Shown: positions 3,080-51,424 of the stretch, one piece after another
How the letters are laid out: each line of letters starts with the position of its first letter
Position numbering within the stretch: the first letter of the stretch is position 1
From: Phorcus lineatus
Taxonomy: Eukaryota > Mollusca > Gastropoda > Trochida > Trochidae
Assembly: GCA_921293015.1 (NCBI GenBank)
Contig: OV121097.1
Coordinates: 26,075,429-26,139,428 of the forward strand
DNA length: 64,000 nt
Direction: 5' to 3'
Translations under genes and position numbers: made by a program
The notes under the pieces: generated by a model
Database searches by the model: none
Seen by the model: the letters and a program-made list of their open reading frames with translations, nothing else
Told to the model about the DNA's origin: nothing

Positions 3080-4540
3080 CCTCTGCAACCAAAGTTATGG
3101 TTTTGGATCACCGGTCCCTACTTCATTCAACAGCAGAATGGCGTGTTGCCATTATTGATTAAAGTAACGCTTGTGTTGGTCACAAGTTCACGAGGATTAA
3201 GGACGCTCTAGAACTAACTACCGTCATACGAGACATTCACTGCAGAGGCTTCTGTCTTTCTGCTTTTTTGCGAGGTGTAATTTGATTTTTGGTTTCGGTA
3301 AGTATGTTAATATCTGTGATATATTCATGTGTACTAATAATACATTCGTATCCGCCTATGCATATATTGCTGATAATAAAAATGGATTTTGGATTTCAAT
3401 ACGAGCCTTCCCTTATGTTTCCAAGCAAAGCTAGAGGTATAACAAGGCAAATGTTAATTTTTATAAGCCATCTCATGCTTCAAGTGAAGCTCCCGTATCA
3501 GGGATTTTGTGAAATTAATTTTAAATCATTAATATGTAACCAATAAATTTCGCTTCTTGAAAGACTGTCATATGAACTTCAAAGATAAATACTTAATGAA
3601 ACGCACCGATAGTGCAGTTGGAAATAAGTAATAAGTCATCCAAATGAGAGTAAATAGCTTCGGTAAACGTACGAAATATATTGTAATCAGAAAAATTTAT
3701 TTGTAAAGAAGACCCGAACGCATCTGATGATCCTACGTCTTTGAAAAAATGTCAAGGACAATTTTGACGCATGTGCTCTGTAGTCGTGCGTCGGAAGTGT
3801 CTCTGCGTTAGCAAGACAATGTCAATACTAAATTACTAATGAACACGATGCGTAGTAAACAGACATTTAATCCTGATGAATATCTTAGCGTTTATCCATT
3901 GTTCACGTCAGATCGAACATCATATGATTGTACACCTTGGTGAGTTTCTTCAAACAGACTCAATCATTACTTATCAAGCAGTGCCAAAATCGATATTCAG
4001 TGACCTGTTCATCTAGTTAGAGGCTCAAACCGGAAAACAAGTAAGTGCTCTGCATACAACAATCAATAACAGTGTTATTGTATTGCTTTCCCCATGTCGA
4101 GTAACCCTTATTTATATGTGATATCAATCGTATAACACTGTATCAAGCCACAAACAATTCAACCTTAGCGCGGATACAACTTTTTTAAAAGTTATCTCTT
4201 ATATGGAATTGATTATACGGAATCGTTAATTTACCTAACAACTAATATTAGTTATTAATTTAGAGTCTGAATATAATGGCCTTTGGGTTTGACAGGGAAT
4301 CAATAGTTCAGACTATACATCATTTACACATCTTTGAGCCAATGACATTGTCCGAAAGTAAGCACACTGTGACATTATAACCCTGCATTGGTAAGTATCA
4401 AAGAAACTCAAGGAGGAAAACCTGAACATGTAAAAATCATCTTTGTACGTCCAAATGGAAAGATAACCTAGAAGTTGGAAACAAATTAAATTACAAAATG
4501 GTTTCCGATGTCTAAATATTTAGTGTTACACATTGAGTAG

Positions 4541-4601
<61 letters not shown>

Positions 4602-4605
4602 TAAT

Positions 4606-4651
<46 letters not shown>

Positions 4652-5060
4652 ACGTTAATATTATTTGCTTTGAGTTGTGGCAATAAATTTTGTTTATATG
4701 TTAATATAGAAAATGGGTCGTTGATGGAAAATGGATGTAATCGCATATCACAAATCAGTTTCCATGTTACGTTTAGAGTAATTTTAATTTAATTAAGATA
4801 AGATTAATTTCACCCATGATTCATTAAACTACATTGTTTCTACGTAACACAAAATGATGGGTTCCACCACTGATGGTGTTGAGAGAGAAAATTAAATATT
4901 CATAATGTGTGGTTAAGCTTGCTATCAATTAAATTATTTACCAGCATAGGTCGTGTAAACAATTCCATCACGTTATCGCATCTAAGGTTTCGCTGCTCTT
5001 GCTTTTCTAAGCTGATACCGAGAGAGATTATCAGCTGGAAAAGAAGCCCTGATGTGGAAA
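3080..5060. repeat. Segmental duplication, copy 1 (partner 19280-21080)
   Basis: Three anchors are shared in the same order with 19.3-21.1 kb. At about 3150-3290 a 'cacgaGTTCACGAGGATTAgg' type tract leads to 'CTGCAGAGG.TCTGTCTT'. At about 4000-4180 there is 'GGAAA.AAGT.AGTGC.TGCAT'. At about 4855-5050 'ATTAAATATTCA.AATGTG' leads to 'TATTTACCAGCA' and 'GCTCTTGCTTT'. The similarity is diverged and gapped, and the copies do not share an open frame, so this is old non-coding duplication. The last anchor recurs a third time at 28085-28270. The compound microsatellite at 4541-4652 is present only in this copy. Confidence 0.65.
4541..4652. repeat. Compound trinucleotide microsatellite ATA / GATAAT / AAT / AAG
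   Basis: An (ATA)n run at 4541-4562 passes into ATG/ATA alternation, then (AAT)n to about 4606, then a nearly pure homopurine (AAG)n tract to about 4651 with one AGG interruption. It produces meaningless polyisoleucine/polyarginine frames on the plus strand and polyleucine on the minus strand. The homopurine section is of a type able to form intramolecular triplex DNA. Confidence 0.97.
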
Positions 5061-7079
5061 TTGTGTTTTGGCATCAATGCATAATTTAATATATGACCAT
5101 CTTAAAACCGTTTAAGAGAAAAATAAATGACGGCTTGAGTTATGGGAAAAAAGAGAAATTGTGTGATTTGTGACGAAGGGAGGAATATATCTGATTCGTC
5201 ATTAATCACGAGTAACAAATAATTTCAATGTAGGAAGACCCTATTGATAAATAAGTTTTGATGAACAATGCTATCTTAACAATGTTTTATACACATGCGA
5301 ATATGTTACAGAGAAGACTACATATAACACGGAGAAAACAATGACCAAATACAGGTTCATCAATGCATTTTCACTTGAGTCAATATTACTGTTTAATGCA
5401 TGTTTTGTGATTGTTGCCATATACAGATGTGCATAAGAAATCAGGTCACCGGTCATTCAGTTAAGACCATGTTCATTTGTGATACAGACATTTCTGTGTC
5501 ATATGTAGCGCTCCTTAGGCAAATAGATTGCTTTCCAAAGTTATAAGAAAAATAGTTTTGTCAGTAACCAGTTAACCAAGGTCAGGTGTTTTTAATAGCT
5601 AGCTCTTAGACACCAAAGTTTCCTCTAACAGAAGGAAGGGCGAAAAAGGATCTTTTATGCTGGTATGCTGGTATGATCTTGCTTTTTCAATTCAGTGATG
5701 TGAGTAACTCTTTTTACCACAAGGATGTCAAACAAAGGTTTCTGTACGGAGGAGTGAACATATCAAATCAAGATATATAATTTTTCTGTGTAGAATTTTG
5801 TCATACCGTCTCTGATTTACGACATTAGGGAATGAGTTTAATTCTTGACCCTCTAGATTGATAACAGAAAGTGAAGATGTTTATTAAAGGCCAGGGAATT
5901 GATACCGGCAGTTTATCTGTCACTGTCAACCTGCCCTATGGCTACTGAGGTTTGAAACACCGTACACGTGGATACGGAATAAGGATGCTTTCAAATCGTA
6001 GAAGTAGAGCATTGAACACTGTTACGTATACAGTATTGGGTCGATGTTTAATAGTAATATTCTCTTTGTATCTAAACTTAATACTTTTCGAGTTTAAATG
6101 GTGCTTCACTTTTCACTTTCATGATTCTCAATATTCAAATCAATTGTTCATTACTATAAATAAAAAAACGAAAAGATTCAAACAAACCCACGTACATGCG
6201 CTCTCAAAATTGTCCCTTCATTGTCTTAAACATTGGATAATGAATGATTATAAAAAAAATTCTTCTTTTGTTAATCTTTTGCGATTACGTTACTCGCTTC
6301 TAACTCGGAAATGTATCACGTTCTGAAGCTTACAAGATTCCCGTTTGACCTTTAAAAGGTTTTCGGTGTGGAAAAGTGTCTTAAAAACGTTTTTACAACA
6401 CAAAATGGCTCTAGTAAGGCATATGAGGCCATAAGCAGTAAATACCAATCGGTGCAAAGAAATGAGACTCATTCTTTACATTTGACATGCAATCAACTAT
6501 TTGAAAGTTTGTATCTGTGTACAAAATTAAATATGGAATGTTAAAAGCGGCTAAACTAGTTCTGTGTGCTGCCTTTGAATTTACCTTTATCTCTGCACTG
6601 AGAACAAAGTATGAAGTATTGTTTATTGAGGCAATCTTGAAAATTTCACAAACACAGTGTTACCTTTGTTATTGATTACCACATAGATGATGTGACCTTT
6701 TCTATAAATGAAGTGTTTAATCTCTGATTGTAGTAATACTAGGCCTTCGGGTTATCAAGCGTTAAAGAATCCTTCCCTTTCTGACTATTCTAAAAGTATT
6801 CACTTTCAGAACGTTAAACCCGGATGAACAACTGAACCCACTGCTCTATTTTCGCTAATCGTAGACATCGATTTCGCTTGGTTTTTTCTCGAGGGCACAT
6901 TTATTCAAAACAATTGTCATTTATTATACACTTGCCGCAAATAACACTTGAAGATAACATGTCTAGACGCCATATAAGTGATACAATCCTATGTATAAAA
7001 AGATGGCCTCACGTTCATCTTAGTACTAAAATAGATAATTCCCCTAGAGCGGTTTCTCTAAATGTTAATATTCTAAGTT
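5061..7079. other. Non-coding stretch containing the longest open frame of the window
   Basis: A 124-codon plus-strand frame (5952-6326) opens at a TTG and is rich in Leu, Phe, Ser and Lys. It has no signal, domain or conserved-looking motif, and its composition matches the surrounding AT-rich DNA. I regard it as chance. Nothing else recognisable was seen. Confidence 0.55.
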
Positions 7080-7344
7080 ATGGTGGTATGTCCTCTTGCC
7101 GTTGTCCACCACTTATGACCCAACTGTCACGGAATGAACTGTTATTACTTGTTATATAATCACCAGTAACCAAGCAGTCCAATCACAGTAAAGTTATGAG
7201 ATGACAGTGACGCAGAAGTTGGGTGCCTATTCGAAGTGGCTGCTGTATTTCGTGCCGTGTCCGTTTGCCGGTCCTTCTCGCCTCGGGCATGTTGTGAACA
7301 TGATGTTGTGTGAAGATATACCCACTGTTTTCATAATATGCTGA
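7080..7344 (+). other. GC-rich island with a 47-codon open frame
   Basis: Base composition rises sharply above the flanks, to about half G+C between 7200 and 7310. An ATG at 7201 opens a 47-codon frame ending at TGA 7342-7344, containing the string KWLLYFVPCPFAGPSRLGHV. The opposite strand is also open (76 codons, 7183-7413), as often happens in GC-rich DNA. I recognise no family. It could be an exon remnant, part of a transposon or a promoter-like island. The short frame is not called as a gene. Confidence 0.3.
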
Positions 7345-8229
7345 TGTAGCACTCATGTAATGTATAATAATGTATATAATGTAAAAAGTATTATCTTGTA
7401 ACTGTGTAAGCAAATAATGAATTATGCCTTGCTTTTAGTATGATACTATACCGGATTGAATTAATCAGCAAATAACAAAAAGTTATTTAACCACATATGA
7501 CCATGGAAAGTGAAATAGCTTTTGAAATTCAACGGTAATATTCGCTAAATGGTTGTCGCCTACATGTATTCCAATTGCAGTACCAAAGCAACCATGTGTA
7601 AAACTATATAAACAATTTGTGGTCCTTCTCGTCCATCGTGAAACAGATTACTACAAGAAGAATCGAAATATCTGATGACAAGAATAATATGAATAGCAAA
7701 AAACAGAAAATCACCACCACCTCCCCTTTCACACTTAATTGCAGTAGCTAGCTACTTTTTATGCAATTCCAGACTTATCACCGATATATACTAATTCCTT
7801 GCCGCAGATTCTGACTGAATCTCCCATGATCTGTGAGCCGTTCGTTGATACCATCGTGAAGCATAGACAAGGTTTTATTATGCGTGGTTGGGTATTCAAT
7901 GGCTTTCTTCTAGAGAGAGGACTGAAGTCGTAACTTATTTTACAGTAGTATTTTATATATAGTGTATGCATTTCACCACTGGTACTATTCTGAAATAAGA
8001 GACTGGTTGACGTTAAGCTTTAAAGTATTTGAACATAATGTTTAATCGTCAATATTTTGAACAATGTAGGCTTGTGGAAATTCTATCAAACTTATATCAA
8101 ACTGTGATCATATAATGTTTTGGAATGGATACTGTATTATTTCTCTCCTTGTAAGGTTAGAGATTTAGCTTTTACACACAGAAAACGGATAACAGTCAAT
8201 CGTTTGGTCCATTGTTAAGCACACAGGAA
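7345..8229. other. Non-coding stretch, nothing recognised
   Basis: AT-rich with no open frame above 70 codons. No repeat or RNA gene was identified. Confidence 0.5.
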
Positions 8230-8640
8230 GGTTACACTTACTGTTCCTTGTCTTTTGTAGTTAAAGAAATAGTATACCGATAATGTTCTATTCATTATAT
8301 GATAGCCTTGATGGGTAGTTCGTATCCATATGAAAATCATATACAGTATAAAGACAATGGCTGTCTACGATGCTACATTGCACAAAACGTTTAAAGAAAC
8401 GTTACATTCTTTAAAAAGGCACATTAAGAACAAAGAAATGTTACACTACATGTATCTTGTCTTTTGTAGTTTAAGAAATAATACACCGAGAATGTTCTAT
8501 TCAATATATAATAGCCTTGTTCGGTAGTTCGTATCCATATGGACGTCGTATACAGTATAATGACAATGACTGTCTACGGTTTTACATTGCACAATACGGT
8601 TAAAGAAATTTGACATTCTTCAAAAACGGAAACTGATAAA
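8230..8640. repeat. Tandem dimer, about 209-bp unit
   Basis: TCTTTTGTAG occurs at 8251-8260 and 8460-8469, and the two units stay collinear through 'AATGTTCTATTCA', 'GTTCGTATCCATATG', 'ACAGTATAA.GACAATG.CTGTCTACG' and 'ACATTGCACAA'. Divergence is roughly 15% by eye. The 65-codon frame at 8330-8527 crosses the junction and is incidental. Confidence 0.9.
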
Positions 8641-8869
8641 GTATAAGAACCCTTATCAATGGTAAAGTGTTGTGCTTTAATGTCTCTTTCAGTTTAGCTT
8701 GGAACTGATGTCTACAGTGTTGAAGCTTTTCTTTGAATGTATTCGATTATCATTTTATCTTATAGGAAGTAAATCTTTAATGAACTTTGGTTTCAATAAC
8801 TTGGGGTTCTCTTCTCGATCAAAGCAAAGGTCAACATGAAAGAAAATCATCGGGAATTTATACATCATT

Positions 8870-9080
8870 CTACCATGAAAGTGCTGGATACTCGATTCTG
8901 ATTGGCTGTTTTGTCCCACTCAGAGGGTATCAATTCACGACTGAAGTTGCTCTGTTTACCCGAAATCAGTTTACACTGTATTAATACATACATTGATTTC
9001 CGACTTCCGACTATCCGCTGCGCGTTCGGTTTCAATTTAAAATTTACTCGCTATCAATCCAGTATAACATGTCTCTGATT
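8870..9080. mobile_element. Possible small DNA-transposon (MITE) remnant
   Basis: A CpG-containing, GC-richer patch holds CTGATTGGCTG near 8900 and a TCCGCTGCGCGTTCGG tract near 9015. Its ends (GCTGGATACTCGAT near 8882 and CGCTATCAATCCAGTAT near 9050) are imperfectly complementary. The terminal pairing is weak, so this is a tentative call. Confidence 0.25.
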
Positions 9081-9489
9081 TTCAAACACACTAGGTTTAT
9101 CTCCTAAATCTTAGTCATTTTCTTCTTGGCGACCAAACGTCATAAAAACAAAGCGTTACATACGCAACTGCCAATGAAACATTACTATTATCATACTTTT
9201 GCGCAACTTATATGTGAAATTAAGCATTATCGAAATATTGAAACATTCATTTCCGGATTCAGAAGTGGATAGGAAACACGTTGAAAACTATATTTTAAGA
9301 AACGTTAGAAATGTTGAATGTCACCTAATATTTTTTCTATCTCACAATCGTTTCTCAATTCCTCTGTCTATGCCTGGATCAGTAGAACATAAAAATATCA
9401 GTATCTCCTTTAAGGAGTTATTATTCATAGATCTCATCAGACCAAAAAAAAACTTTCAGTTTTGTATATTTGCTCAACCATAATGAACC

Positions 9490-10400
9490 TATGAAATTTA
9501 TTATCGACTGCAGAATATGTTTATAGCTTTCAAAATGAAACCGACAAGTATCTTAAAAGTTTTTGTTTCAATTTTCACGGAAATGACATTTACAAGATGA
9601 TAATATCATTGTTATAGGTTGGCAGAATTATATCAGTATGAAACGTGTCTGTTTCAGAACTGATTTCATCTGATGGTGTCAAATTATCAAAGCAATATAA
9701 CAGTGTGAAACAGATGGAACCTTAAGACAGGAAGGGAAAAAATGATTCAATTGATCAAACAATGATGATATTGTTTGCATGGTTGAAATGATTTTTACAT
9801 ATCTTATGGGAACAGTGCAAAGAATTATTGTAGGCGAGAATTAAAAAAGATCTATTATATTTTCATGAATTTATCATGTGCTGAGTATTGAAGATTCTAT
9901 CAGGAATAAGACAAACAAGACAGAGGTTAAACAACATTTGTACAGCTTGCGAGCATGGTTAAGACGACATACGCAGAGTATTCAACACAAACAAGAAAAT
10001 TATTACTGAAATATTAGCACTTTAAATATCACAAGTTGTTCATACCATATGTAGTACTCAATAAATAACATAGAGCAAAAATATATGTGAATCAATCAAC
10101 GGTTTAAAGCAATACAATTGTCTCTACAACTCTCACCAGCGTTGTCCTGTTCGACTATCTGTCCTATTGCCAACCGACATTAGCGAGTAAATAACACATG
10201 TCCTAAGGGAATAGGGCTTCTGCAAAATGGGTCTTAGTCAAATGTGCCGGAATGTGTCCTGATAACAAGACATTCATTGCTTACGCGCAGTCACATCTGT
10301 TGACACAGTTACTGTTGCGTACCATTACATGAATGACTTCAATTCCACGCATGCAAACGTAATGTTTATGCTTACGTTGTTTTATGCATATGAACTTTTG
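9490..10400. repeat. Duplicated block P, copy 1 (partner 11640-12990)
   Basis: Collinear anchors shared with copy 2 include 'CACCGACAA/ACCGACAAG', 'GATTTCATCT.ATGGTGTCA', 'AACAGTGTGAAACAGAT', 'CAGGAATAAGACAAA.AAGACAG', 'CATGGTTAAGACGACAT', 'GGGAATAGGGCTTCTGCA' and 'ATAACAAGACATTCATTGCTT'. Copy 1 lacks the 11926-12070 insert. No open frame is conserved between the copies. The JTG-like word 'CATCTAATGGTGTCATA' of this block also appears near 14630, possibly a third decayed fragment. Confidence 0.8.
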
Positions 10401-10460
10401 TACCTAAAGATAATAATTCTATTTATTATATACCCATGTAAACTTAGGATAGTAATACAA

Positions 10461-10529
10461 GGGTGCAATACGGAATCCGTCTTCAAATTCCGTATTGCAC
10501 TCGAGATTCCGCGGATCCGTATTGCACCC
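10461..10529. repeat. Palindromic element: GTGCAATACGGA in one direct and two inverted copies
   Basis: GGGTGCAATACGGA at 10461-10474 is matched by its perfect reverse complement TCCGTATTGCACCC at 10516-10529. A second inverted copy, TTCCGTATTGCAC, lies inside at 10487-10499. The first and second or first and third copies can pair, giving alternative hairpins. The two overlapping plus-strand frames here (10329-10651) merely read through it. It is likely the end or core of a fold-back transposon. Confidence 0.85.
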
Positions 10530-11164
10530 CTGCCGGTTCTACTTTTTCTGAACCTTGGGACTTCCCGGATTTCCCGAAGCAGCTATTTATAGATATACAT
10601 TTAGGTCATTGGGATTCCCAGTTTGCGAGAGTTGCACAAAAGCTCTTATAAATCAAGATTGTCATTTCCAAATGATTTGATTACAAGTATAAACAAATAC
10701 CATGAACCATGAAAATCAGCAGCGAAAGCGTAGACGTGTTATCTTCAACAGTGACTCCGACTAACTGACGGCGCGAGCCACGACAACGTATTTGAAAATT
10801 TTGAAAATGACCTTGAACTTTAAAAGTTACTGATTTCTACGCGATTGTTTATAAACAAAATAGCTCAATCATTGTTTGATATATGCTTTATCATATTAAA
10901 TCAATTCTGAATTTGATCAAAATATCTTTCTTTTTATCTATTTGTTGTTATTGTAAGATGTGAAAGTCGGACTTGCTATACTTGACGTCATGCGGAGGAA
11001 TGTGGCATTCAGGTCAATTGCGTTATTCGGTCATCGGCGTACTAATACCAATGTCAAGGTAAACTCAACGCGGAAGTATGTATGGCGTGAAAATGTGTAT
11101 CGCTACGCAACCTTTTATTTTTTATAAAACATATTTTTATTAATTAAGATCGGGTATATAATAA
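10530..11164. other. Non-coding stretch with CpG-rich patches and a TGACGTCA site
   Basis: It lies between two palindromic elements and has several CpG-rich islands (near 10765 and 10985-11095). A perfect TGACGTCA (CRE/ATF-type octamer) lies at 10983-10990. It may be the body of a larger element ending in the hairpin at 11165-11327, but I could not define ends. Confidence 0.4.
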
Positions 11165-11327
11165 ATATAGAACGTCATACTAGTGCATTTTGATGTTTTG
11201 TATTGAACTCGAAAATGTCATGGGAGCATAGAAACAACTCGTTCTTCGAACTCGTTGTTTCTCTGCTCCCATGACATCTTCTCGTTCAATACAAAACATC
11301 AAAATGCACTAGTATGACGTTCTATAT
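11165..11327. mobile_element. Fold-back element FB1, two ~78-bp arms
   Basis: The outer 43 bases of the arms (from ATAGAACGTCATACTAGTGC on the left to the reverse complement ending near 11326) are perfectly complementary. The inner approximately 30 bases have a few mismatches and close on a TTCGAA centre with almost no loop. Fold-back or MITE-type transposons have this structure. The low arm divergence implies a fairly recent insertion or arm homogenisation. No coding capacity. Confidence 0.9.
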
Positions 11328-11639
11328 ATATATTCATATGCTCTGACCGCATGTAACGACGTTTGTAGTGTTTGTGATGTTTAACATATGGAGTCGTTTA
11401 TGACATTAGCAAGGAGAGTGTTTATTAAAAAACCCAACAAATATATAAATGTAGATAGTGATGTGCATAAATATTTCATTATCATTGCTTGTTAGCATTG
11501 AGTTACAGTGCAAACGCAAATTATCAGAAAAACACTTTGTTTGTTTTTTGTGCATGTACAGTTTGTGTATCTGTATGTGCCAAATGCCTTTTACTACTTA
11601 ATTACCTTATCATTCTATAAACACCTTGTTGACTACTTA

Positions 11640-12990
11640 TTTTGAACGTGCTTATGTTCGTATTTAATACTGACTATAAACTATGTCTACAACTTTCCAA
11701 ATGACACCGACAAACATTTAAAATAATTTTCCCCTGAAATTCGATAGTTGCAAACTATATTCATAACGACATAATGACATCTACAAAACGATAACACTGA
11801 TAACTGAGTACGTTGGTAGAGTAATATTAATATGAAACTTGTCTGTTTTAGCACTGATTTCATCTAATGGTGTCATATTATGAAAGCAATTTAACAGTGT
11901 GAAACAGATAGGTCCTTATGAGATGTTCAGAGCAGTACCACCCATGGTTCGCTAGTTCCAGCCCATACTCGCAGGTTTCACCGCAATACATAGCCACAAT
12001 GGTGTTGCGGGCTTTCCCCCTGCAATACTACTAGCAGGCGCGATATAAGTTAAATGAAGTAAAGCAATATAAAGAACTTGCTTCCAAAAATCAAAGATTA
12101 CAAAAAACAATTAAAAAAGATATTTCTAGTAGAGAATTTCGTTTCCAAAAGAAATAATGAAATAGAAAAACTCAATTATAAGTGGTGTCCACTCGCCCCA
12201 TTATTCAATAGCTAATTGCAATTGCATTCTGAAATGAATAATTCTTTAACTTCTTCTATTGTAATACCTATAAGTTTTATGATGTATATAATTGACTATG
12301 TAACCATAGGAAACAATAAAACAAAATTAATGCTTATCATACACGAATTCATTGCTGTCATGGTTCAAATAGCTTGTTGACATGTCTGAGAGGGCGGTCG
12401 AGTAGGTATATAGGTTATATTAGTTTCATCCGTTTCATCATATACTGGGTATAATATAACAGTATAACAGTACGACAATATAACAGGAATAAGACAAAGA
12501 AGACAGGGTTGGTAGATCATTTGTAGACTTGGAAACATGGTTAAGACGACATCAAAAGGATTTATAAGACTTCCCAAGATTATAGATAAATGATGGAAAA
12601 TCAATACTTGTATAAATATTACAACAACAAAAGTTGTACATATTTCAGGAATCATAGTCAAAGTAAAGGATATAAAAAAACGGTAAATTAATGTCATTTA
12701 TCTATAAGAAGGAACACAGTTTTCAAAACCATAAAGTTAATAATCGTCTCTGCAAAATCTCCACAATTTAGTCATCTTCCTCATCTTCAAATGCCTACAG
12801 GGAGTAGGGCTCCTGCACACAAAAAAATGCTATAATGAGAATGAAAGTGTGTCGAAATGCTTTCTTATAACAAGAAGTTCATTGCTTTAGTGAAATAATT
12901 TTTGTTTACGCATTGACGACTGCGTTCAATCGTATGAATGCTTTGTGTTCATATAATGCAATCTTTGTGAATATATGAAAATCCTTCTTA
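11640..12990. repeat. Duplicated block P, copy 2 (partner 9490-10400)
   Basis: It is longer than copy 1 because it carries the SINE-like insert at 11926-12070 and additional AT-rich sequence around 12080-12460. The order of shared anchors is the same, and homology resumes at 'CAGGAATAAGACAAA' near 12484. A 110-codon minus-strand frame (12365-12697) falls here but is not open in copy 1, arguing against coding. Confidence 0.8.
11926..12070 (+). mobile_element. SINE-like insertion inside block P copy 2
   Basis: A markedly GC-rich segment runs from about 11926 to an A-rich end ('GATATAAGTTAAATGAAG'). It contains GGGCTTTCCCCCTGCAATAC followed by a CTAGCAGGCGCGATATAAG tract. It interrupts homology between the two P blocks exactly after the 'GAAACAGAT' anchor, which supports insertion after the duplication. 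The tRNA-derived head is not clear, so the class is inferred from size, composition and the A-rich 3' end. Confidence 0.45.
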
Positions 12991-14049
12991 AATACACACG
13001 CGCATCAAACGCATTCCATAATAAGCTTAAAATTTTTCAATTTCACATACACAGTCATTAATAATATTACCAGAGAGATGGAATTACGTTACCGTCTTGT
13101 TCCAGGCACTTTAAACACTGCTAACAAAGGATGATCGACATTATCTCTATAAAATATCACAAATAAACATACATAGGAACATGAGGTTTCTCTGAAAACC
13201 TAAAAACTGGGAAACGAGAAGCTCTTTCAAGGAAAACCGACATGTTTGCTTCATTATCAATCTCAACATGTTACATCAATTAGTAACGGTTGGTAGGATA
13301 TTGGACAATTTAAGAAAATACAAGACACCTCTGGTTCCGAGCAAGACGAAGGCCTATATTTGCTTGCATTACACCAACGTCTACGCATTCATTGACAATA
13401 TAGCTGCATTGGTCGGTGTGTTGGTTATGTTCCCATGCATCACAAAACTTTAAGTATAAAATAACAGAGCTATTGGACTGCTTCGTGGACATTTGCTTAC
13501 AACTAAACGTTAACATATTGCCAATGTGTGTCACTAATGCTTACGATCACAATTATGCAGGCTTAAACCTCTCAGGACGACATTATCATATCTTGGCGTC
13601 GTAATCCAATGTTGTTAAGCTTAAAAGCTTTCTGAATGAATCTATGTGTGAGCTGTTAGTTGATTTCCGTGATGGAGATGATCGATGACAGCCTTGCCAT
13701 TGCTCTCTGGGAAAAGCATATTCAATCTGAGATCAAAGTTACGGAAAACATTGTTTAGAATCATAAAATCATAAGATGGATAAAATAATGTTCTGGTAGG
13801 TTGTTATAAATACAAAAAATCTCTCTGAATTTTTTTTTATTAACTCCTTGTTTTATGCCACCTTTGAATATCGCATACGCTTTTTCAAGTAAAGTTTTTA
13901 AACTGCAAAAGCATTAACCAATTGTATGTCATGAAAATTGCAAATGTCAATTTCATTACACTCAACCTTGGTCAAAGTATTTACATTAAATCGGTCAATA
14001 TTCTCAAAATTGAAATTGTTTACCATTGATCTATATTTTTATATATTAT
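12991..14049. other. Non-coding stretch upstream of the splice-like site
   Basis: Several overlapping 60-74 codon frames occupy both strands between 13268 and 13604, which by itself argues against coding. No repeat or transposon end was recognised. The last 100 bases become increasingly pyrimidine-rich. Confidence 0.5.
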
Positions 14050-14120
14050 TATTTATTCCCCTTTCTTTTTCCTTTTCAGGTAAGTAAATGTTTGAATACT
14101 TCAAAGAAGGTTGGTGAGTA
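14050..14120 (+). promoter_or_regulatory. Candidate recursive (ratchet) splice site RS1
   Basis: A long pyrimidine tract (about 14057-14076) ends in CAG at 14077-14079, immediately followed by GTAAGTA at 14080-14086: a near-consensus 3' splice site fused to a near-consensus 5' splice site. This is the form described for recursive splice sites in long introns of flies and vertebrates. A second 5' splice-like sequence, GTGAGTA, begins at 14114, which would define a 34-nt RS-exon (14080-14113) or a microexon. No gene has been identified to use it, so function is inferred from sequence alone. Confidence 0.5.
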
Positions 14121-17100
14121 ACGAAAAATGTTTTAGATATTTATTTTGCAGTTGGTCTGTGTCAATGGTTGTACATGAATATGTTTGTATAATTAGATAG
14201 GATGTAAAGATCCTTCCCGCAGACTGAAGTTTCCAAATAATATCTACATTGATAATTTTGAATGAATAGGATTCGTACATTGATTAAAACAAAGAACATT
14301 TCCTGCCGCGGTAATTTATGATTCGAATCAATGAGGCAAAACCCTCTTAGTTGATGAATGGATAATTTGATGTACTAATGTATATTTAATGAAAATGGTC
14401 AAATCCGTTCATGATTTTGAATTGTACTCACTAATCTACTTTTCATGTTATTTTATTTACAAAACAGTCTTGCGTGTTCAGTTCTCGTTTTTCGATTTTT
14501 TATTAATCTTGTTTGCATTCTGTAGAGTCCAGTCAGCACATTACCGAGTCAAAAGCTGCTTACATCCTTTGCGCATTAGTTGGGCGTGTAATATTAATGT
14601 GACAGATATACGTTATTGGCACTGATACCATCTAATGGTGTCATACTGAGAATGTAATGTAACGCATACGCTGGTATTGGAACAGATAGTTCCACAGGAA
14701 ATAGATGTTCTTGTGATTATTTCCGTGATACGTTTGCTAGCGTTATTGAGTGTTGTGTTTTAAAATCCGATTAAATGATACAGTCCAGTTGGAGTGAAAT
14801 ATATTTTCATAATACATATTTGTGTGCTATGTATATCATATTTATCAAGGTTGCTCCTTGTCATAGCTAAACTTGTAGATAGCAGTTACAAATATAACAG
14901 TATCAGTTCAAATAGAAAATATCTATGATACCTGACAATAGTTAAAGCTTATACTGTTAAAATGACGATACTTCTCAAGCTTTGTACAGCAGATCGTAAT
15001 TTAAAAGGATAAAACAATTTAATGGACTGGTATGGTAACATCCATTTGAATGATCTTCCATCTTACAAATAAATGTAGTTTTGATTAGGTCACTGCTTAA
15101 TTTTAGCATTAATGTATTTAAAAAAATTCAAAGTTGTGTCTAATAAGTAATACACAATAGCTGATGAGACTATTAAAGATAAAGAGATTGAAAATTTTGA
15201 AATTTAAGAGATTTGAATAATAAAACGATAAAACAAGAGCATTTTTATAGTCCTCAATCAGAGTCATTATCTTATTGAAGCAATGTTTGTATGCCATGCA
15301 TGAAAACAACTTAGGACTACCAAAAGGAAACACTGAAATTTTGTGAAACCGTGATTTCTTCCATGACGTTCCATCAATTGTTCTGACACACCGTTTTATG
15401 TTATAAAGTAACACATTCTATTTCATGTCTGTGTCGGACATTTGAAATTTCAGATCATTAAGGATCTCTAATCACCATGTCCAGATTATTATCCTGATCT
15501 TGTTTACAAATAGTGACAATTAGATTGTTAAAGCACGATGATTGTTATTGTAGACTAAGTCAATATCGTTTCCTATCTAGCCCCATGCAAATATTATCTT
15601 TCCGTTTGACTTAGACAGCATAAGGGATGGCCTTATTGACATATTGAATAAATATTTGTACTTGCGGCGAAAAAACTTTTTGATTTCGATGTCTGTAACA
15701 CGATATTTTTTTATAAACACTTTATAGGTTTTTATAAAGATACTGCTTTTATACCTACCCTTTACTTACAATCAATTCTGACAAGACATGAACCAATGTA
15801 CCAATGTTGTCTTACATGTAAACATGACCATGCTCTGGAACGTAAATGATCATTATTGAATATATCAGATTGACTCGTGGATAGAGATATCTTGAAGCTG
15901 GTATTGTCTTGGCCATGTAGTGTTAACAATCATGGAATATACAGAATGAAATTGAATATGTTTAGAACTTGATTACCAGAATGAACACATTTTCAAGCTT
16001 TACACTCATGTATCGTGTATGACACCTAGATTTTCCTATGGTAGAGCTAAAATCATTTCGAAAATCGCGTTCAATATATTGGTCATATTTGAATAGTAAC
16101 TGCGCTTTTCTTTAAAGGATTACCTGTTTTAATCCCTAATATCCCAAGAAAATCATACTCTTAACCTCAACATCATTTAGCTAAGTGGCTCCACCAAAGC
16201 TTTTGGAGACTATATCTGTTATCGTGAGCGGAAAACGAAGTGATTTAAATTTGGAATTCTGATTCTATCTAATGACATATTGGGAGAGCTTTGCCTGATA
16301 CAGGGGAGCAGATGTTCAATGTTATCGGACAGAAAGGACGTCACGTTCCGTGCGATGATAACACTAATGAGTCGACATAATGAAGTAGGTAAAATTGTAC
16401 TGTATAATGTGTTTGAAAGAACTTATTCGGAATTTAAATCTATATTTTATTTTATAGCTTGATAATTGTTAAACAGCGAAAAAGTTAAACTTATGACAAA
16501 CTTGTAAACGCTACATATACAATTGTAACTCACTTAAATGTTATGGTGCAGGTAACGAAAACATTTACAGACAATGCAACCATCTATGGTAACATAGCAT
16601 TGAAATAATTTTCTCAGAAGTTCAGTATCTTTGTAAATAGAATATCACATAAAATGAAGATGGATATTGAGATATATTGAATGTTCTAATATATGAAATA
16701 ATAGAAAATGAATGTAGAAAACCATTGGTATTCATCGAAAACGCAGATATTCATAAATGTTTCCCTTTCTGTAATTTGCAATAAATATAACGATAATATC
16801 TTATGATATATAACTTTGTCATTAAAAAGTGAGTGAAACATGGTATAAATAATCGGATTACATAATTAAACAAGATAAAAATATTAACCTTGTCCTGGAC
16901 TCTTGTCACAATGATTGTGCTATCAAAATGGTCGGCCTTTTAACGTTATGCTATGAAAACGGCAGTCGAGATACCATTGGCATTAACATGGTCACAAAAT
17001 TGGACAAAGCTGGCAAGTTCACATGAAACTAAATCACAGCAAAGTTTGTGATATCTACTAAAAAATAAGAATTTGAATTATATCTGTGCGAAGGGCACAA

Positions 17101-17848
17101 TTGTTAGTTATGGTACTCGAAATTTTGAACCCTTTTGAAGTGACTCTCCCGGGCTATTCATCGTCAGTCATCATAGGACTGTTTTTCAAATCAACCAATG
17201 AGAATCAAGAATAATATTACAACAGAGTTTGTTGCATGACCATTATGCAATGAGTAAATATTGACAGTATAGCATTAAATTGATAATTTAATCATCTGAA
17301 ATTACAATGCTGTCTTTAACTTTCCTGACGACCGGTGGCAAGTTCTTTCCCGACCATTTGGCTGTTACGTTGTGACATTTGACATTTCAGAATACGGCAA
17401 GGTAGGTCTGTACGATTGTTGTAATTCGAATTAATGTGTCTGTTTACATTCACTGAATGAGATTCTATGACTCACCTTATTCTACTAATTAAATCACAAA
17501 AAACACACATAACTAAACGTTGTCTGATAGTTTGGGATTGAGACTTGGTTAAAGATAAAATCAAATGTCTAATATTTTGTACATTCCTCCTGTAATGTTG
17601 TACCATACTTTGCTCTTGATTGAAAGATGCTTTAATCATTTTCTAGACAAGTATTACATAGGTAGCTCGGCTAGTGTCAAAGCCTATACATCTTGTTACT
17701 TATTTCTGAATGAAACGGTAGTTCTATCCTCTTCGAATTTTCAGTTTAAAGTATGCAACATTTGATTCAACGTTTAAATACTATGGTTCACTACGACAAC
17801 ACAATAGCTTTTAGCAGGAACCTGGGCACAGCTAATATCATCGAGTGA
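14121..17848. other. Non-coding stretch, one possible decayed repeat fragment
   Basis: A short tract near 14625-14640 (CCATCTAATGGTGTCATA) resembles block P, and the region around 16250-16320 is more weakly similar. Open frames do not exceed 98 codons (15118-15414, minus) and show no recognisable motif. No RNA gene seen. Confidence 0.45.
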
Positions 17849-17996
17849 CTTATAGAGATTATTACCCGAGGAAGTGTGTCATATGACTTTTACGAAACGT
17901 GTATTATCCGAGCGAGAGCGAGGGTTATACACTAATCTGCACGAGTTTCGTAAAAGTCATATGACACACTTCCGAGGGTTATAATTTCTTTATAAC
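17849..17996. mobile_element. Fold-back element FB2 with nested inner palindrome
   Basis: The left arm (about 17849-17899) and right arm (about 17944-17996) match almost perfectly through GAAGTGTGTCATATGACTTT and TACGAAAC, with one small indel near the outer end. The centre holds a second, smaller inverted repeat (GTGTATTATCCGAG against CGAGGGTTATACAC) around a GCGAGAGCGAG core. A pair of TGACGTCA octamers lies about 65-90 bases to the right. Confidence 0.9.
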
Positions 17997-18059
17997 TGAT
18001 TCTATTTCATTTTAAACTCACGGAATGCGGCCTGCTTCCTTTCCGGCGGCCCGCTACAG

Positions 18060-18090
18060 TGACGTCACGAACAATGGTTTTATGACGTCA
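18060..18090. promoter_or_regulatory. Paired TGACGTCA (CRE/ATF-type) octamers
   Basis: Two perfect palindromic octamers at 18060-18067 and 18083-18090 lie 23 bases apart, centre to centre, in a CpG-richer patch just right of FB2. The octamer is the classical CREB/ATF site. Occupancy or function here is unknown, and the pair may be part of a transposon. Confidence 0.5.
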
Positions 18091-18135
18091 CAGACGAGGT
18101 GATACGGTAACTCGCTCTGAAACAATCGTTGCTAG

Positions 18136-18947
18136 GAAAAAGTGATATGTGCACATGTGCTCATATTGAAAATATGTCACTGCTTATGATTAACCATATG
18201 GGTAATAAACATATTTATTTCATCACGAGTGGCGCAATCATATAATAACGTATAATTAGAAGTCAAAATGAATATTAATCTTTTTTTAAAAGGATCCTTT
18301 TTTTCTAAATATTCTGACCTCCAGCATGATAATAACAATTATCTCTTCCTGGGCTTTAAATATAATATCAGCCCTCTGCCAACATTATTTAGGTTTAGAT
18401 TTTTTAAAAAGCTTAAAAGAAATTCTTAAAAAGGCATTTCGTTTAAAATTGTGGTGCTTAATTGGACTGTGTGAAAAAGGATGATATATTTATGATTTCA
18501 GATGATTATTTAAGTGCCTAGTTATTTCATTTACAAATACATTTCTATGTTCTATATATTTACATTAGTAATTGTTCTTTCTAGAATGTTGTGAGAATCA
18601 GTGTAGAAATGTTCTGCAGTCGTAAATGAGATATTGTGATATTGCTAATCATACGACTGTCATTTTGACAAAATTGATTATCGCGAATTTGAAAATATTT
18701 AAAAATAGTGGCTGAAGTTATATTTTTAAGCATTTAAAACAAATTTTATCATTAATGTTCTTTCAAATGCGCAAAAGGCCAACCATATAACTACTGTATA
18801 ATGATGGGGCGCTTAATATGTTTTATTGTGTATTGAGCTATATTTTTGTTTTAATTGCAGAACTACTACTAGCAGATAAGATTCATGCTTGGTTAAAATT
18901 AGGATATGTTACTTCTTTGAGTGACATTTTTTAGCAATTGGAAGCGA
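18136..18947. other. Non-coding stretch, nothing recognised
   Basis: Very AT-rich. No open frame above 60 codons, no repeats and no RNA gene recognised. Confidence 0.55.
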
Positions 18948-19140
18948 ATGAATACAAATATTTATGTATGACAACTTCTTTATAATGAGATTGCGGCGTT
19001 TCGATACAGATTCTTGTATCGTTGTCAAGCGTGACATTTCCTCCATATGCCATTCACGCTTGACAAGGATACATGAATCTGTATCGAAAAGTCGCAATCT
19101 CATAATAAAGACGTTGTCATCCATAAATATTTGTATTCAT
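18948..19140. mobile_element. Fold-back element FB3, two ~88-bp arms
   Basis: The left arm begins ATGAATACAAATATTTATG at 18948 and the right arm ends with its reverse complement at 19140. The arms keep pairing through GAGATTGCG, TTTCGATACAGATTC and TTGTCAAGCGTGA with roughly 10% mismatches, closing on a short loop near 19040-19052. Both strands therefore carry nearly the same 62-71 codon frame (18909-19124 minus, 18964-19152 plus), which is a consequence of the palindrome and not a gene. Confidence 0.92.
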
Positions 19141-19279
19141 AGGATATATTAATCTTTCCCGATGCGGTTATCAAGGCGACTGTACTGTACTTTAGTATGT
19201 TCCAAGTTAACTGTGGTTTCACTCATTATGTTAATATGTAAATGCAAGCAGGTATCGGTCTTTCTTCAAGACAAACATT

Positions 19280-21080
19280 CTGCAACTGGAGCTACTGCTG
19301 CCGTTGTCAGTTAATGTACACATGTCTGCTCACGAGTTCACGATGATTAGGGTCACGTTATAAATACCAACTGACATATCGAACAGTAACTGCAGAGGTA
19401 TCTGTCTTAATGTCCTTTTCCGAGGTATAATTATCTTCTTTAAGATTAGAAAAAGCAAGGCTAATGTCTCCCTTGCTGCAGAACAAGCCATTTCTTGGCT
19501 CCATATGAGGGCCTAATTTTCGATTCTGATACAAACATTCATCAACTTAGTTTCATATGACCAATGATGTGACGTTAACTTTTGTAAAGTCTTAAAACTA
19601 TGTGAAAGTTAAATGTGATTGATTAAGCGCTTTTCAACTTAGTCACTTGAGTAAAGAGCGTTTGCCTTATCATCGATTTTGATACAAACATTTAACAACT
19701 TTGTTTCATATGACCAATGAAGTGACATTAACTTTTGTAAATTCTTAAAACTATGTGAAAGTTAAATGTGATTGATTAATCGTTTTCCCACTGAGTCAAC
19801 TGCGTGAGGAGCTTTAACTTATAGTCAAATGATTACTTAACCGAAACTTTCGACGTGATAGCTATGGTGATCAGAATTCATCCCATAAAACGACAATCTG
19901 AACAATCTGGAAAGGCTCTTGATAAAGCAAGGATTTTTTGCGCTTTTCACAAAACAAGTATTCTATTTCTTGCATTGGTATTATGTGTTCGCTTAAATAA
20001 ACTGTCAATAATGATAAACTATGCATCAAAATTTTATATTAACAGAGGTAAATATTAAACAGATATATACGTAGATGTATATCTATAGTTCACGTCCATA
20101 CTGATCATTTACACAATTGTACAAAGAAGAATATTTATCTATTCAGACCTCAAAGACTTTGAGCGGATTGAAAATTAATATTCACTGAATTGTTCGTCTA
20201 ATGAAAAGCAGAATCCGGAAATGAGTTAGTGCCTTGCATCAAATACTGTGTGATTGTATTTCTTTCTTCCTTTCGAAAAGGATCCCTTATGTCAATGACA
20301 TACCAGTTGTATATTGCTGTTTCCAATTAATACAATTGACCCTCATTGTGGACTCTTCGTCTTCGTATAAAACGCTAACATGAAATGGCTTTTATTCGAA
20401 TGGTTAACTGTGTACAGATTGGTATTAGTCATTCATTGAATGTTCTTTAGGGCATGGCACGGAATTAATATTGCAGGCAATATTGAATTGACACGTGTTT
20501 AAACAAATGAATTGAATTTACCTCTCCTCACTACAAAGTCAAACGATAAGGTAAAATTGCAACATTTTCAGTCGCAAGAACATAACAAAATTAGTGTAGT
20601 GGTTATGATTGTTATTTACAAAATAGAATTGGTAAAATATTTGATGTAAAATTAAAATAGTATATGAGTCATATGTTGTCAATTGACTAAAGCTCAAAGT
20701 TAATCATTGTTCATACGCGCGTTCAAATGGTCCCGATCATGTTTGTACAAAATGTATGGTCATCGGAGAGTGCCTGGTATCAAATATCGTCTGTTTACTT
20801 GAATAAGTCAAGTATATAAGTGTAAGACTAGTATAAATTGCAAATATAATTCAGTACACTGTATAGTTATCACGTGATACGAAAAGGAAAATGATGAGTT
20901 CCATAACTGACGATGCAGATTTTCTGGGCACGGACATTAAATATTCACAATGTGGGAATAAGCCCGCTGTTAATGTCATTATTTACCAGCACGAGTCGTG
21001 TGAGCACTGGCGTCACAATATCACAACAAAACTTTATTGCTCTTGCTTTATTCAACTAATAGAGGTTACACTTCACGAAG
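19280..21080. repeat. Segmental duplication, copy 2 (partner 3080-5060)
   Basis: It shares the three ordered anchors of copy 1, at about 19320-19430, 20180-20340 and 20890-21060. It additionally contains a 153-bp tandem dimer at 19515-19825 that is absent from copy 1. The frame at 20891-21088 (65 codons) spans the last anchor but is not open in the other copies. Confidence 0.65.
19515..19825. repeat. Tandem dimer, about 153-bp unit
   Basis: Unit 1 starts near 'CGATTCTGATACAAACATT' at 19521 and unit 2 near 'CGATTTTGATACAAACATT' at 19674. They stay collinear through 'TTTCATATGACCAATGA.GTGAC', 'AACTTTTGTAAA' and 'AAAACTATGTGAAAGTTAAA'. Identity is about 90% by eye, so this dimer is younger than the surrounding segmental duplication. 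Confidence 0.93.
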
Positions 21081-22213
21081 AATGTTAATTAAGTTTTATG
21101 TTGTAAAAACAGACCATCGTTATATTCGTATATGAAATGCGTTATATAGAAAATATACTATCAATTGCCAATGTGAACATTTATAAGTAAAATGATCAAA
21201 ATTCCGTCAACAAAATTCGTAGTTTTTGGGTGCTAAAGGAACAAAAAAAGAGATGGTATTTTGAAAATTTAAGAGAACAACTCAATGACTCATATCGCTG
21301 ATACATGTACACTAAAATACTGCTGACAACTCTAACCGTTAAAGCGCTCTCGCTCAAGCAATTACTCAAATCTCTGATGATAAATCACATCATGATCAGA
21401 TCCTGACACCGTTTCAATGAATAAGACAGACACGGGGAAAATGAAAAGCCGATAACGTTTATCAGTGCATTGTTTGCAACGTTAAAGGGCTTAGGTCCAT
21501 ATCAGTGTTACTAAATTGCATTTGCGGCATACCATGTCGTTCCGTTTCATACCGTGCAATAGGAAGTAGATTGCTTTGAGACAAAGGAAACGCAGCAATA
21601 CTTCCAATGTGTATTCCTGGTCATATTTGCCTCTCAAGTGAATAAGTGAATCATTTCTTATCACTCTGTAGTCACCCGAACATAATCAGTATGTCCGAAC
21701 GTAATCGTTTCTCGTCACTTACCAGTTCCCAATAGATCTTGTGTTGATGTTTACCATTACCAAAGCCTAAAAAGTCCTGAAAAAACGAAAAAGGGGGGAA
21801 AATAACATTGCTCTTATGATTATCAAACCTAAGCCAATTCCTTGATAACGATTCCTAGGTTTAACAAATGAGCATACAATGACAAACTTTCTTTATTGCA
21901 TAATTGCTTTTAAAAGTAAAATATATAATCAGAATTAAGACTACAAAACTATACCGTAAGAGCTTAAGTTTACACAGTAAATATCCTTATGTGGCTTCAT
22001 TGAGGTTGCTACAGGCTTGTTACTTTGAATAAGGTATCTACGACGATGGTCAATAGGTAGATAAAATATACCCCTCATATATTCAAATATTTCTAGTAGG
22101 TACTTGTGCAATCATTTTAAAACGCAGGGAAGCATTGTAAAATTTGTTTGATAAAATAATCGAAATGTTGGTCTCAGTTTGTAACCGCTCGATTTTGGCT
22201 TTTGGTAAACGTG
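21081..22213. other. Non-coding stretch, nothing recognised
   Basis: AT-rich, with no open frame of note. Short G- and A-runs near 21790 are the only compositional feature. Confidence 0.55.
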
Positions 22214-36368: not shown

Positions 36369-38029
36369 ATAAAAAAAGTCATTATCTTCTGGAAAAATTA
36401 ACGTTCTTTTCCTTGAGATCACTTTATTTAGCTTAAATAAGCGAGACTCTACCTTTAAGTGTCTGTTTAGAATCACAAAGCTTAATAATCTTGAAGCAGT
36501 CTACGAAGAAGCCGACCTGATGTCGTCAAATTACCAGAGCTGAGTGAACTTGCAATTAAATTTTCATGAAATTCTATGAACAGAAATTCATTAATCGATA
36601 TTAATTCAATGCACCGTCTCCATGGTAGACAGATGTTCCTTTTTAGAAAATGAAAGGACATATATCCTATAGTATGAATAACCTAAATCCTACAAATATT
36701 GTCTTTATTTGTCAAGTATTTAGTCATAGGCACTCAATCCAATTGGGACGACAATTTCAGCTCAATTAGATGTAGCCATGGTCACATAAAGACAATTTTA
36801 GAATATGTAAAATCATTTCAGCATAATATTGAATAACGTTATGGAATATATTTTTGTTTTAATAACTCTCTCTCATTTGAATAAAAAAAAACGTTACTGA
36901 TCATTGACCAATATGAAGAAAAATTAAACATCCTGGTTCTCGGTAATAACACCTCTTAAGAGTAAACACTTTGGATGTTAAAAATCGAATAGTTTATGAT
37001 TTGATTTGAATAAGTGCAAGCTTGATAATCTATACCATGATATTCCATAAAATTATAGATGAATTTCTCCTTTGATATATCTCTTTCAAATCAGATTTAC
37101 TTAAAATTGACAGAAGCGAAAAAAATAAAATAAAGGTAGAAGTAAGCGTCCTTCATAGCCACAACATTTTCATACATGGACTCCTAATATTAAGGCAGTG
37201 AAAGAGACAGCTCTAGCTCTTTAAAACTCTGCCACTTAATCTGATAAAATAAACTGTAGTTATGTCTCAGAAGGCCTTTAAAGTCGTTGTAAGCGGAACT
37301 GTGTATTGAACAGCAAAAACTTGAATCAGTCATTTTTCAACGAGTAGGAATTTAGTGCATATTTGCGCAATTTAGTCAATTTGATATTTCATCCTATATT
37401 TATAATTATTCCAACAATAGGCAGTGAAGACATAACATTAAATCTCACGTTTATGGACCATACGATTCATTAAAGAGTAACAGAAAAGTGTTTTAATGAA
37501 TGGATGACATCTATCAAGTATATTATATTATATGTTAGAGGGACCGAGTTGCCTAATAGTATAAATGATGTCAGTGATCGGACATGTCACTAACAAACAT
37601 GTTAAAATTGCTGGTACAAGTATGCATTAGATGAACTGACGAAAGAAATATTTAAGATAGTAAGATAAAGAAACCCACTATTAACAGACATAATTTAAAA
37701 CCTATGATATTTAACTAATAAATGAGTGAGTGAAATATTGTTAAGCGCAACTAGGCAACTATTTCAGCCTCTAAGGACGCTTGAACTCTTGAACAATTAA
37801 TGACAGTATCATATGCAACTCAGAATCGTCAATTAGATTAGATGCAAAGGCATGGTTTGGTTTTAGTTCCAACGTCTAGACTATACTAAGCAACCAGTGA
37901 AAAAATTACTTTAGATTTGTTACTGCAGTTTACAATGACTGAGATAATTGAATTTCTTAAATTATTCTCTTTTTTAGTATTTATTTCTTTTATTCAATTT
38001 TTTGTATGGTACATTACCATCACTTAAAT
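36369..38029. other. Non-coding stretch, nothing recognised
   Basis: No open frame reaching 60 codons. A GAGTGAGTGAAATATTGTTAAG tract near 37723 weakly recalls the SINE-like head seen at 46640, but it is too short to call. Confidence 0.5.
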
Positions 38030-38105
38030 TCTTTTCACTGACGCATTTGTTCTCTTTTGTCTTCAGGTAAGTCTATTTTCCTCCATTTCTGGTCGATGGT
38101 AAGTA
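38030..38105 (+). promoter_or_regulatory. Candidate recursive (ratchet) splice site RS2
   Basis: A possible branch-point context (TCACTGAC near 38036-38043) and pyrimidine tract (TTGTTCTCTTTTGTCTTCAG) end in CAG at 38064-38066. GTAAGT follows immediately at 38067-38072. A second strong 5' splice site, GTAAGTATG, starts at 38099 and would define a 32-nt RS-exon at 38067-38098. The arrangement matches RS1 at 14.08 kb on the same strand. As with RS1, no host gene is visible in the window. Confidence 0.5.
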
Positions 38106-44718: not shown

Positions 44719-44779
44719 ATTTCATTACTTTTTATTTGCCTATATTTCCAACGACAGTGATTACTACTCCTGGGAACTA

Positions 44780-46830: not shown

Positions 46831-46859
46831 AACTATAAATCAATTTTTCTTCTCACAAA

Positions 46860-51400: not shown

Positions 51401-51424
51401 GAACAAAAATTTATTTGAAAATTA

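What the first reader, a model, noticed from the sequence alone, without database searches (positions are those of the whole stretch)
14050..14120. Textbook recursive splice site (RS1) in gene-free DNA
A long pyrimidine tract, CAG, and GTAAGTA are fused without a base between them at 14079/14080. That is the recursive-splicing (ratchet point) form described for long introns in Drosophila and vertebrates. A second 5' splice-like GTGAGTA begins 34 nt downstream, as in vertebrate RS-exons. I know of no published recursive splice site in a mollusc.
Basis: partly seen in the sequence, partly recalled or inferred. Interest (0 to 1): 0.75.

Follow-up and report, generated by a model that had tools for sequence, protein, structure and literature searches.

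The report
Paired recursive splice sites, likely intronic
This stretch of what looks like animal DNA carries two probable relay points at which a very long intron would be cut out in steps, a trick known from flies and mammals; whether the cell uses them is not tested.

Summary
It is stronger than reported: a second site of the same form lies on the same strand at 38066|38067, 23,987 nt on, again with a second donor (GTAAGTA) 32 nt later. On the plus strand the two best acceptor scores (of 3,239 AGs) fall exactly on the two positions that tie for best donor (of 3,697 GTs); zero displacement ranks first of 2,001, and simulated sequence gives about 0.002 such sites per window. Both sites have the anatomy described for fly ratchet points: AG-free zones (100 and 87 nt), branch-point candidates at -24 and -25, a ratchet donor stronger than the short exon's donor, and exon lengths that break the frame. 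Most likely both are working recursive splice sites in one very long plus-strand intron. Against: an equally exon-like minus-strand pair lies between them, and no host exon was found. Transcription, conservation, host gene and phylum (mollusc) could not be tested. A new member of a known kind; searches of open-access papers found no report for molluscs.

The parts
14056..14079 (+). RS1 acceptor: 22-nt pyrimidine run (14056-14077) ending in CAG (14077-14079)
   Evidence: Sequence; best 3'ss score of 3,239 AGs on + strand, 16.7 bits; the only CAG of 1,367 with 20 of 20 pyrimidines
14080..14088 (+). RS1 ratchet-point donor GTAAGTAAA, fused to the acceptor (CAG|GTAAGT)
   Evidence: Tied best 5'ss of 3,697 GTs on + strand, 12.75 bits; CAGGTRAGT found only twice in window
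14080..14113 (+). Putative cryptic RS-exon 1, 34 nt (not a multiple of 3)
   Evidence: Highest-scoring exon-like pair (25.5 bits); open in frame 0 only
14114..14120 (+). RS-exon 1 donor TTG|GTGAGTA, weaker than the ratchet donor (8.79 against 12.75 bits)
13978..14077 (+). AG-free zone of 100 nt upstream of the RS1 acceptor, with branch-point candidate TTTAT (A at 14055, 24 nt from the junction; one of 3 yTnAy within 60 nt)
   Evidence: AG-to-AG gap 102, top 0.7% of AG gaps (top 1.2-1.9% among AGs with 13-15 or more of 20 pyrimidines)
38043..38066 (+). RS2 acceptor: GCATTTGTTCTCTTTTGTCTTCAG
   Evidence: Sequence; second-best 3'ss of 3,239 AGs on + strand, 14.2 bits; third when both strands are ranked
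38067..38075 (+). RS2 ratchet-point donor GTAAGTCTA, fused to the acceptor
   Evidence: Tied best 5'ss on + strand, 12.75 bits
38067..38098 (+). Putative cryptic RS-exon 2, 32 nt (not a multiple of 3)
   Evidence: 24.8 bits, third of the exon-like pairs on both strands; open in frames 0 and 2
38099..38105 (+). RS-exon 2 donor ATG|GTAAGTA, weaker than the ratchet donor (10.59 against 12.75 bits)
37978..38064 (+). AG-free zone of 87 nt upstream of the RS2 acceptor, with branch-point candidate CTGAC (A at 38041, 25 nt from the junction; one of 2 yTnAy within 60 nt)
   Evidence: AG-to-AG gap 89, top 1.1% of AG gaps (top 2.3-3.8% among pyrimidine-rich AGs)

Best explanation
14079|14080 is a working recursive splice site (ratchet point) of a plus-strand transcript, one of at least two in one very long intron. 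Inferred working: the 34-nt cryptic RS-exon (14080-14113) is first recognised with the help of its own downstream donor at 14114, and an upstream exon is spliced to the CAG at 14079. The joining leaves GTAAGT at the junction as a new donor with the full U1 consensus. This donor is stronger than the RS-exon's donor, so it wins, and the 34 nt leave with the next intron piece when the junction is spliced to 38066. The same is repeated there with the 32-nt RS-exon (38067-38098), and then to an exon beyond the window. Nothing of either site stays in the mRNA. Shown: the sequence anatomy and its improbability by chance. Inferred: transcription of this strand, use of the sites, their order, and that both lie in one intron.
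For: Exact anatomy. The two best acceptors of the + strand are the two tied best donors. Displacement control: offset 0 ranks 1 of 2,001 for the best pair (29.5) and for the second pair (27.0, next offset 18.7); by best pair offset 34 is 2nd (25.5) and 32 is 5th (24.8), these being the two RS-exons. Minus strand: best fused site 18.4, offset 0 at rank 48 of 2,001. AG-free zones 100 and 87 nt, branch-point candidates at -24 and -25. Simulated rate about 0.002 per window; 0.4% and 0.5% of simulated fused sites above 22 bits (n = 282 and 185) had a second donor like these. Self-BLAST finds no similarity between RS1 and RS2 and no repeat over either. Literature: fly ratchet points have a short cryptic RS-exon (about 50 nt), generally out of frame, with a ratchet donor stronger than the RS-exon donor (PMC8605326 Introduction); most fly RS sites have another 5'ss less than 100 nt downstream (PMC6224609); introns over 50 kb of five invertebrates hold 0.48-2.2 ratchet-like sites per 100 kb against 0-0.12 on the complementary strand (PMC2773006 Table 2).
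Against: No RNA and no related genome could be examined. No exon of a host gene was found (Pfam), so transcription of this strand is not shown. A minus-strand exon-like pair (21723-21776, 54 nt, one open frame, 25.4 bits) lies between the two sites and is also unlikely by chance (0.007-0.04 per window); if real, a gene on the other strand is present too. RS2 also has an acceptor-like AG at 37976-37977 (11.5 bits) that would make 37978-38066 an 89-nt exon, and another ending at 38132 (12.1 bits). The best minus-strand fused site (52624, 18.4 bits) also has a second donor, weaker (7.6 bits) and 74 nt on. The spacing of 24 kb is longer than the fly's typical 9-15 kb (PMC6110457). The simulated nulls were trained on this one window and the matrices are recalled.
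Confidence: 0.83

Rival explanations
1. The two elements are ordinary short alternative or poison exons (34 and 32 nt) that happen to begin with GTAAGT and are included in some mature transcripts, with no second splicing step.
For: Each has a good acceptor and a donor close behind (25.5 and 24.8 bits, first and third of the exon-like pairs). Both lengths break the frame, as poison exons do. The donor of RS-exon 2 is only about 2 bits weaker than the ratchet donor.
Against: Two of two exons starting with CAG|GTAAGT is not expected of ordinary exons; the ratchet donor is the stronger at both. This reading shares its anatomy with recursive splicing and differs only in outcome.
Confidence: 0.1
2. 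Chance: unused splice-like strings in untranscribed DNA, picked out because the reader looked for striking motifs, possibly in many windows.
For: A large genome would hold some single sites of this quality by chance (about 0.002 per 64-kb window, both strands).
Against: Two in one window on the same strand, each with a second donor within 34 nt; next-best fused site 8.6 bits lower; long AG-free zones.
Confidence: 0.05
3. The two halves belong to ordinary exons of a long non-coding or nested gene; for example 38067 is simply the donor of an 89-nt exon 37978-38066.
For: The acceptor-like TTCTCTTTTTTAG ending at 37977 pairs with the RS2 donor (24.3 bits, open in frame 0).
Against: It does not explain the pyrimidine tract, the CTGAC branch-point candidate and the high acceptor score at the end of that exon, nor RS1, whose upstream 100 nt hold no AG.
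Confidence: 0.02

Closest known systems
Intronic ratchet points with cryptic RS-exons of Drosophila long introns (Ubx, kuz, Bx, Ten-m)
   Same: Fused pyrimidine-CAG|GTAAGT; short out-of-frame cryptic exon with a weaker downstream donor; several on one strand of a long stretch
   Different: No RNA evidence here; spacing about 24 kb against the typical 9-15 kb of flies; RS-exons of 34 and 32 nt are shorter than about 50 nt
Vertebrate recursive splice sites with RS-exons (for example CADM2, named in PMC6224609)
   Same: RS-exon defined first, then competition between the reconstituted donor and the RS-exon donor
   Different: Vertebrate long introns show little or no enrichment of such sites over the other strand (ratio 0.9-1.5, PMC2773006); two strong sites in 64 kb would be unusual there
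Annotated RS-exons kept in the mRNA by the exon junction complex (human, mouse)
   Same: Exon that begins with a donor motif
   Different: Here the ratchet donor has the full consensus and is stronger, and the exons break the frame, which predicts skipping rather than inclusion (inference)

Membership tests
Recursive splice site (ratchet point) | Acceptor and donor juxtaposed at AG|GT with strong scores for both | tested here: met
   16.7+12.8 and 14.2+12.8 bits; ranks 1 and 2 of 3,239 acceptors and tied rank 1 of 3,697 donors on the + strand
Recursive splice site (ratchet point) | Enrichment on one strand over the complementary strand | tested here: met
   2 on +, 0 on - above 18.5 bits in 64 kb; one window, so a small count
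Recursive splice site (ratchet point) | Lies in a long intron of a transcribed gene | tested here: inconclusive
   No coding domain found (Pfam; two minus frames of 4400-19398 searched against PDB only; minus 63299-64000 not scanned). Fits an intron, does not show one
Recursive splice site (ratchet point) | Junction reads, lariats or saw-tooth coverage | not testable with these tools
   No RNA-seq available
Recursive splice site (ratchet point) | Conservation of the AG|GT motif in relatives | not testable with these tools
   No animal genome collection is offered; the genome search did not answer 8 identical requests
Cryptic RS-exon | Second 5' splice site less than 100 nt downstream | tested here: met
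   34 nt and 32 nt; 0.02 GTRAGT expected in a 41-nt stretch
Cryptic RS-exon | Ratchet donor stronger than RS-exon donor; exon length breaks the frame | tested here: met
   12.75 v 8.79 and 12.75 v 10.59 bits (recalled matrix); 34 and 32 nt
Cryptic RS-exon | Recognised by the spliceosome and then excluded from mRNA | not testable with these tools
   No RNA-seq available

The most novel reading that the evidence does not exclude
A lophotrochozoan (mollusc) splits a single intron of more than 64 kb at two or more fly-type ratchet points with cryptic RS-exons. Together with flies and the enrichment reported in sea urchin, this would make intronic ratchet points an ancestral bilaterian way of removing giant introns, with the vertebrate scarcity a later loss.
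Probability: 0.5. Interest if true: 0.65.

Novelty: new member of a known kind. Interest (0 to 1): 0.52.

Why it matters
The passages that I saw of a 2026 review (PMC13149111) name flies, mice and humans as the animals where recursive splicing is documented; for sea urchin, mosquito, bee and beetle motif enrichment is reported (PMC2773006). Flies have many cryptic intronic RS-exons, deuterostomes more annotated RS-exons, which in human and mouse are guarded by the exon junction complex (PMC6224609). Which state is older is a question that a third branch of bilaterians would help to decide. The two sites give exact coordinates for a cheap RT-PCR or a look-up in existing RNA-seq, and suggest that genome-wide fused-site scans should work in such genomes.

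Tried and rejected
Duplication or repeat origin: self-BLAST of the window shows no similarity between the two sites and no repeat over either; an 85-nt repeat (14579-14663, copy at 11812-11895, 76%) starts about 500 nt downstream of RS1. Weak inverted repeats around RS1 (for example 13901-13921 with 14133-14153, 76%) were not pursued.

Further sites: the next fused site on the + strand (58823, 16.6 bits) scores below the best on the minus strand (52624, 18.4), so it is not counted. Offsets -284 and -66 rank third and fourth in the displacement control (24.9 each); -66 fits the RS2 donor with the acceptor-like sequence at 38133, -284 was not traced.

Strand asymmetry of pyrimidine runs (37 against 70 overlapping counts) goes once 4501-4700, which holds the AAG array, is left out (13 against 16 runs); dropped.

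Host gene: no Pfam family at E up to 0.1 in what was scanned; no positive control was run for the stop-as-X reading, so short exons outside known domains can have been missed. Of 10 stop-to-stop frames of 100 aa or more the longest has 125 aa. Rfam: 0 matches. tRNA: 0. The minus-strand 54-nt candidate exon with its read-on (34 aa) matched nothing convincing in the PDB (best E = 1). Species: no tool could place it.

Papers: 'recursive splicing' or 'recursive splic' with mollusc (0 papers), cephalopod (1, PMC8797185, both words in its reference list only), mollusk (2: PMC8997533 checked in passages, unrelated; PMC11944328 seen in the listing only), bivalve (0). Two searches with several animal names: none of the 15 and 10 papers listed holds 'recursive splic', but these were 15 of 12,284 and 10 of 1,150, so they say little. 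(5 of 5, 18 of 18, 25 of 33 and 2 of 2 papers listed) showed no mollusc paper by title. Duff 2015 and Sibley 2015 are not held. Seen of each paper: PMC8605326 outline, Introduction and passages; PMC2773006 abstract, Introduction, one Results section and passages; PMC6110457 abstract and Results; PMC6224609 abstract, Introduction, two sections on evolution and one methods paragraph; PMC13149111, PMC10156609, PMC8797185 and PMC8997533 passages only.

Full report
What is there. At 14056-14079 a run of 22 pyrimidines ends in CAG and is followed without a base by GTAAGTAAATG; 34 nt further on, at 14114, stands GTGAGTAAC. A pattern search showed a second site of the same form on the same strand: GCATTTGTTCTCTTTTGTCTTCAG|GTAAGTCTATT at 38066|38067, with GTAAGTATG at 38099, 32 nt further on. 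The sites are 23,987 nt apart.

Is it more than chance? CAGGTRAGT occurs twice on both strands of the window (0.52 expected), and these are the two sites. Of 1,367 CAGs on both strands 11 have 16 or more pyrimidines of 20 upstream; both sites are among the 11 (hypergeometric 5.9e-5). The consensus Y12-N-CAGGTAAGT with up to two mismatches is found twice against 0.08 expected; 1 of 100 shuffles had two. Among 900 simulated windows of Markov orders 2, 3 and 5 (300 each), one CAGGTRAGT with 16 or more of 20 pyrimidines appeared, in the order-5 set. In 236 Mb of simulated sequence for each of two Markov orders, 4 and 3 sites reached 26.99, about 0.002 per window, and none of the 7 had a second donor of 8.7 bits or more at 20-60 nt. 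A control that keeps the real sequence: acceptor and donor scores were paired at every offset from -1000 to +1000. Offset 0 ranks first of 2,001 for the best pair and for the second pair (27.0, next offset 18.7). By best pair the next are 34 (25.5), -284 and -66 (24.9 each) and 32 (24.8); 34 and 32 are the two short exons. On the minus strand offset 0 ranks 48th.

Anatomy of a working site. Both acceptors have long AG-free zones, 100 and 87 nt; the AG-to-AG gaps are in the top 0.7% and 1.1% of all gaps, or the top 1.2-1.9% and 2.3-3.8% among pyrimidine-rich AGs. Both have branch-point candidates at usual distance: TTTAT with its A 24 nt, and CTGAC with its A 25 nt, from the last base of the AG; the motif yTnAy is loose and occurs 3 and 2 times within 60 nt. 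Both are followed by a second donor at 34 and 32 nt, where 0.02 GTRAGT would be expected in a 41-nt stretch. The ratchet donors (12.75 bits both) are stronger than the donors of the short exons (8.79 and 10.59). The short exons have 34 and 32 nt, not multiples of three; the first is open in one frame, the second in two. Self-comparison of the window shows that the two sites are neither copies of each other nor within a repeat seen in the window.

Comparison with what is known. Ratchet points of Drosophila have the same fused motif, a cryptic RS-exon of about 50 nt that is generally out of frame, and a ratchet donor generally stronger than the RS-exon donor, which leads to loss of the RS-exon by donor competition (PMC8605326, Introduction). 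Most fly RS sites have a further 5' splice site less than 100 nt downstream (PMC6224609). Introns above 50 kb of five invertebrates hold 0.48-2.2 such sites per 100 kb against 0-0.12 on the complementary strand; eight vertebrates have 0.07-0.14 on either (PMC2773006, Table 2). Two on one strand and none on the other in 64 kb is what a long invertebrate intron would show, though the score scales differ. In flies 63% of introns above 40 kb have a high-confidence site, and pieces are typically 9-15 kb (PMC6110457); the 24 kb here is longer.

What could not be shown. A stop-as-X reading against Pfam of all three plus frames, and of the minus frames except two frames of 4400-19398 (searched against PDB only) and 63299-64000, gave no family at E up to 0.1. 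This fits the inside of an intron but equally an intergenic stretch. The phylum could not be checked.

Against the reading. A minus-strand exon-like pair at 21723-21776 (54 nt, one open frame DFLGFGNGKHQHKIYWEL, 25.4 bits) stands between the two sites and is itself unlikely by chance (0.007-0.04 per window at this level, 150 simulated windows for each of two orders). It may be a nested gene on the other strand, or the window may belong to a minus-strand gene with an overlapping plus-strand transcript. RS2 has a further acceptor-like AG at 37976-37977 that could make an 89-nt exon ending at 38066 (24.3 bits), and another acceptor-like sequence ends at 38132 (12.1 bits). Neither accounts for the complete acceptor at 38066. 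The best minus-strand fused site (52624, 18.4 bits) also has a donor behind it, 74 nt on and weaker (7.6 bits), so a trailing donor alone is not proof.

Verdict. Recursive splicing at both sites is the best reading (0.83); ordinary short exons starting with GTAAGT 0.10; chance 0.05; halves of ordinary exons 0.02. It is a new member of a known kind. The interest lies in the pair with RS-exons and in the possible branch of the tree: a testable hint that intronic ratchet points are older than the split between flies and molluscs, if the species is one.

Noticed in passing
window 21723-21776, minus strand: Exon-like pair: TTTTTCGTTTTTTCAG|54 nt|GTAAGTG, length a multiple of three, one open frame (DFLGFGNGKHQHKIYWEL); possible nested or overlapping gene on the other strand. 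The frame stays open 16 codons past the donor.
   Followed up: partly
window 41194-54696: Old, diverged local duplications (66-85% identity): for example 41194-42714 with 47304-48843 and 44835-45166 with 50055-50388; looks like a rearranged duplicated segment of several kb.
   Followed up: no
window 25446-25817, plus strand: Open frame ending ...GSHAFSVIARVLLKSILLEIRTATYIYSFRHYLKTHLFSLHF..., which recalls the tail of a LINE-type reverse transcriptase (from memory; no Pfam hit).
   Followed up: no
window 8215-8626 and 19520-19798: Tandem arrays with units of 209 nt (2.0 copies) and 153 nt (1.8 copies).
   Followed up: no
window 38133, plus strand: Further acceptor-like sequence TTTTCATTTTTTCTAG|GTCACAT 66 nt after the RS2 junction, itself AG|GT (12.1 bits).
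   Followed up: no
window 13901-13921 and 14133-14153: Weak inverted repeat (21 nt, 76% complementary) whose arms flank RS1; may be chance.
   Followed up: no
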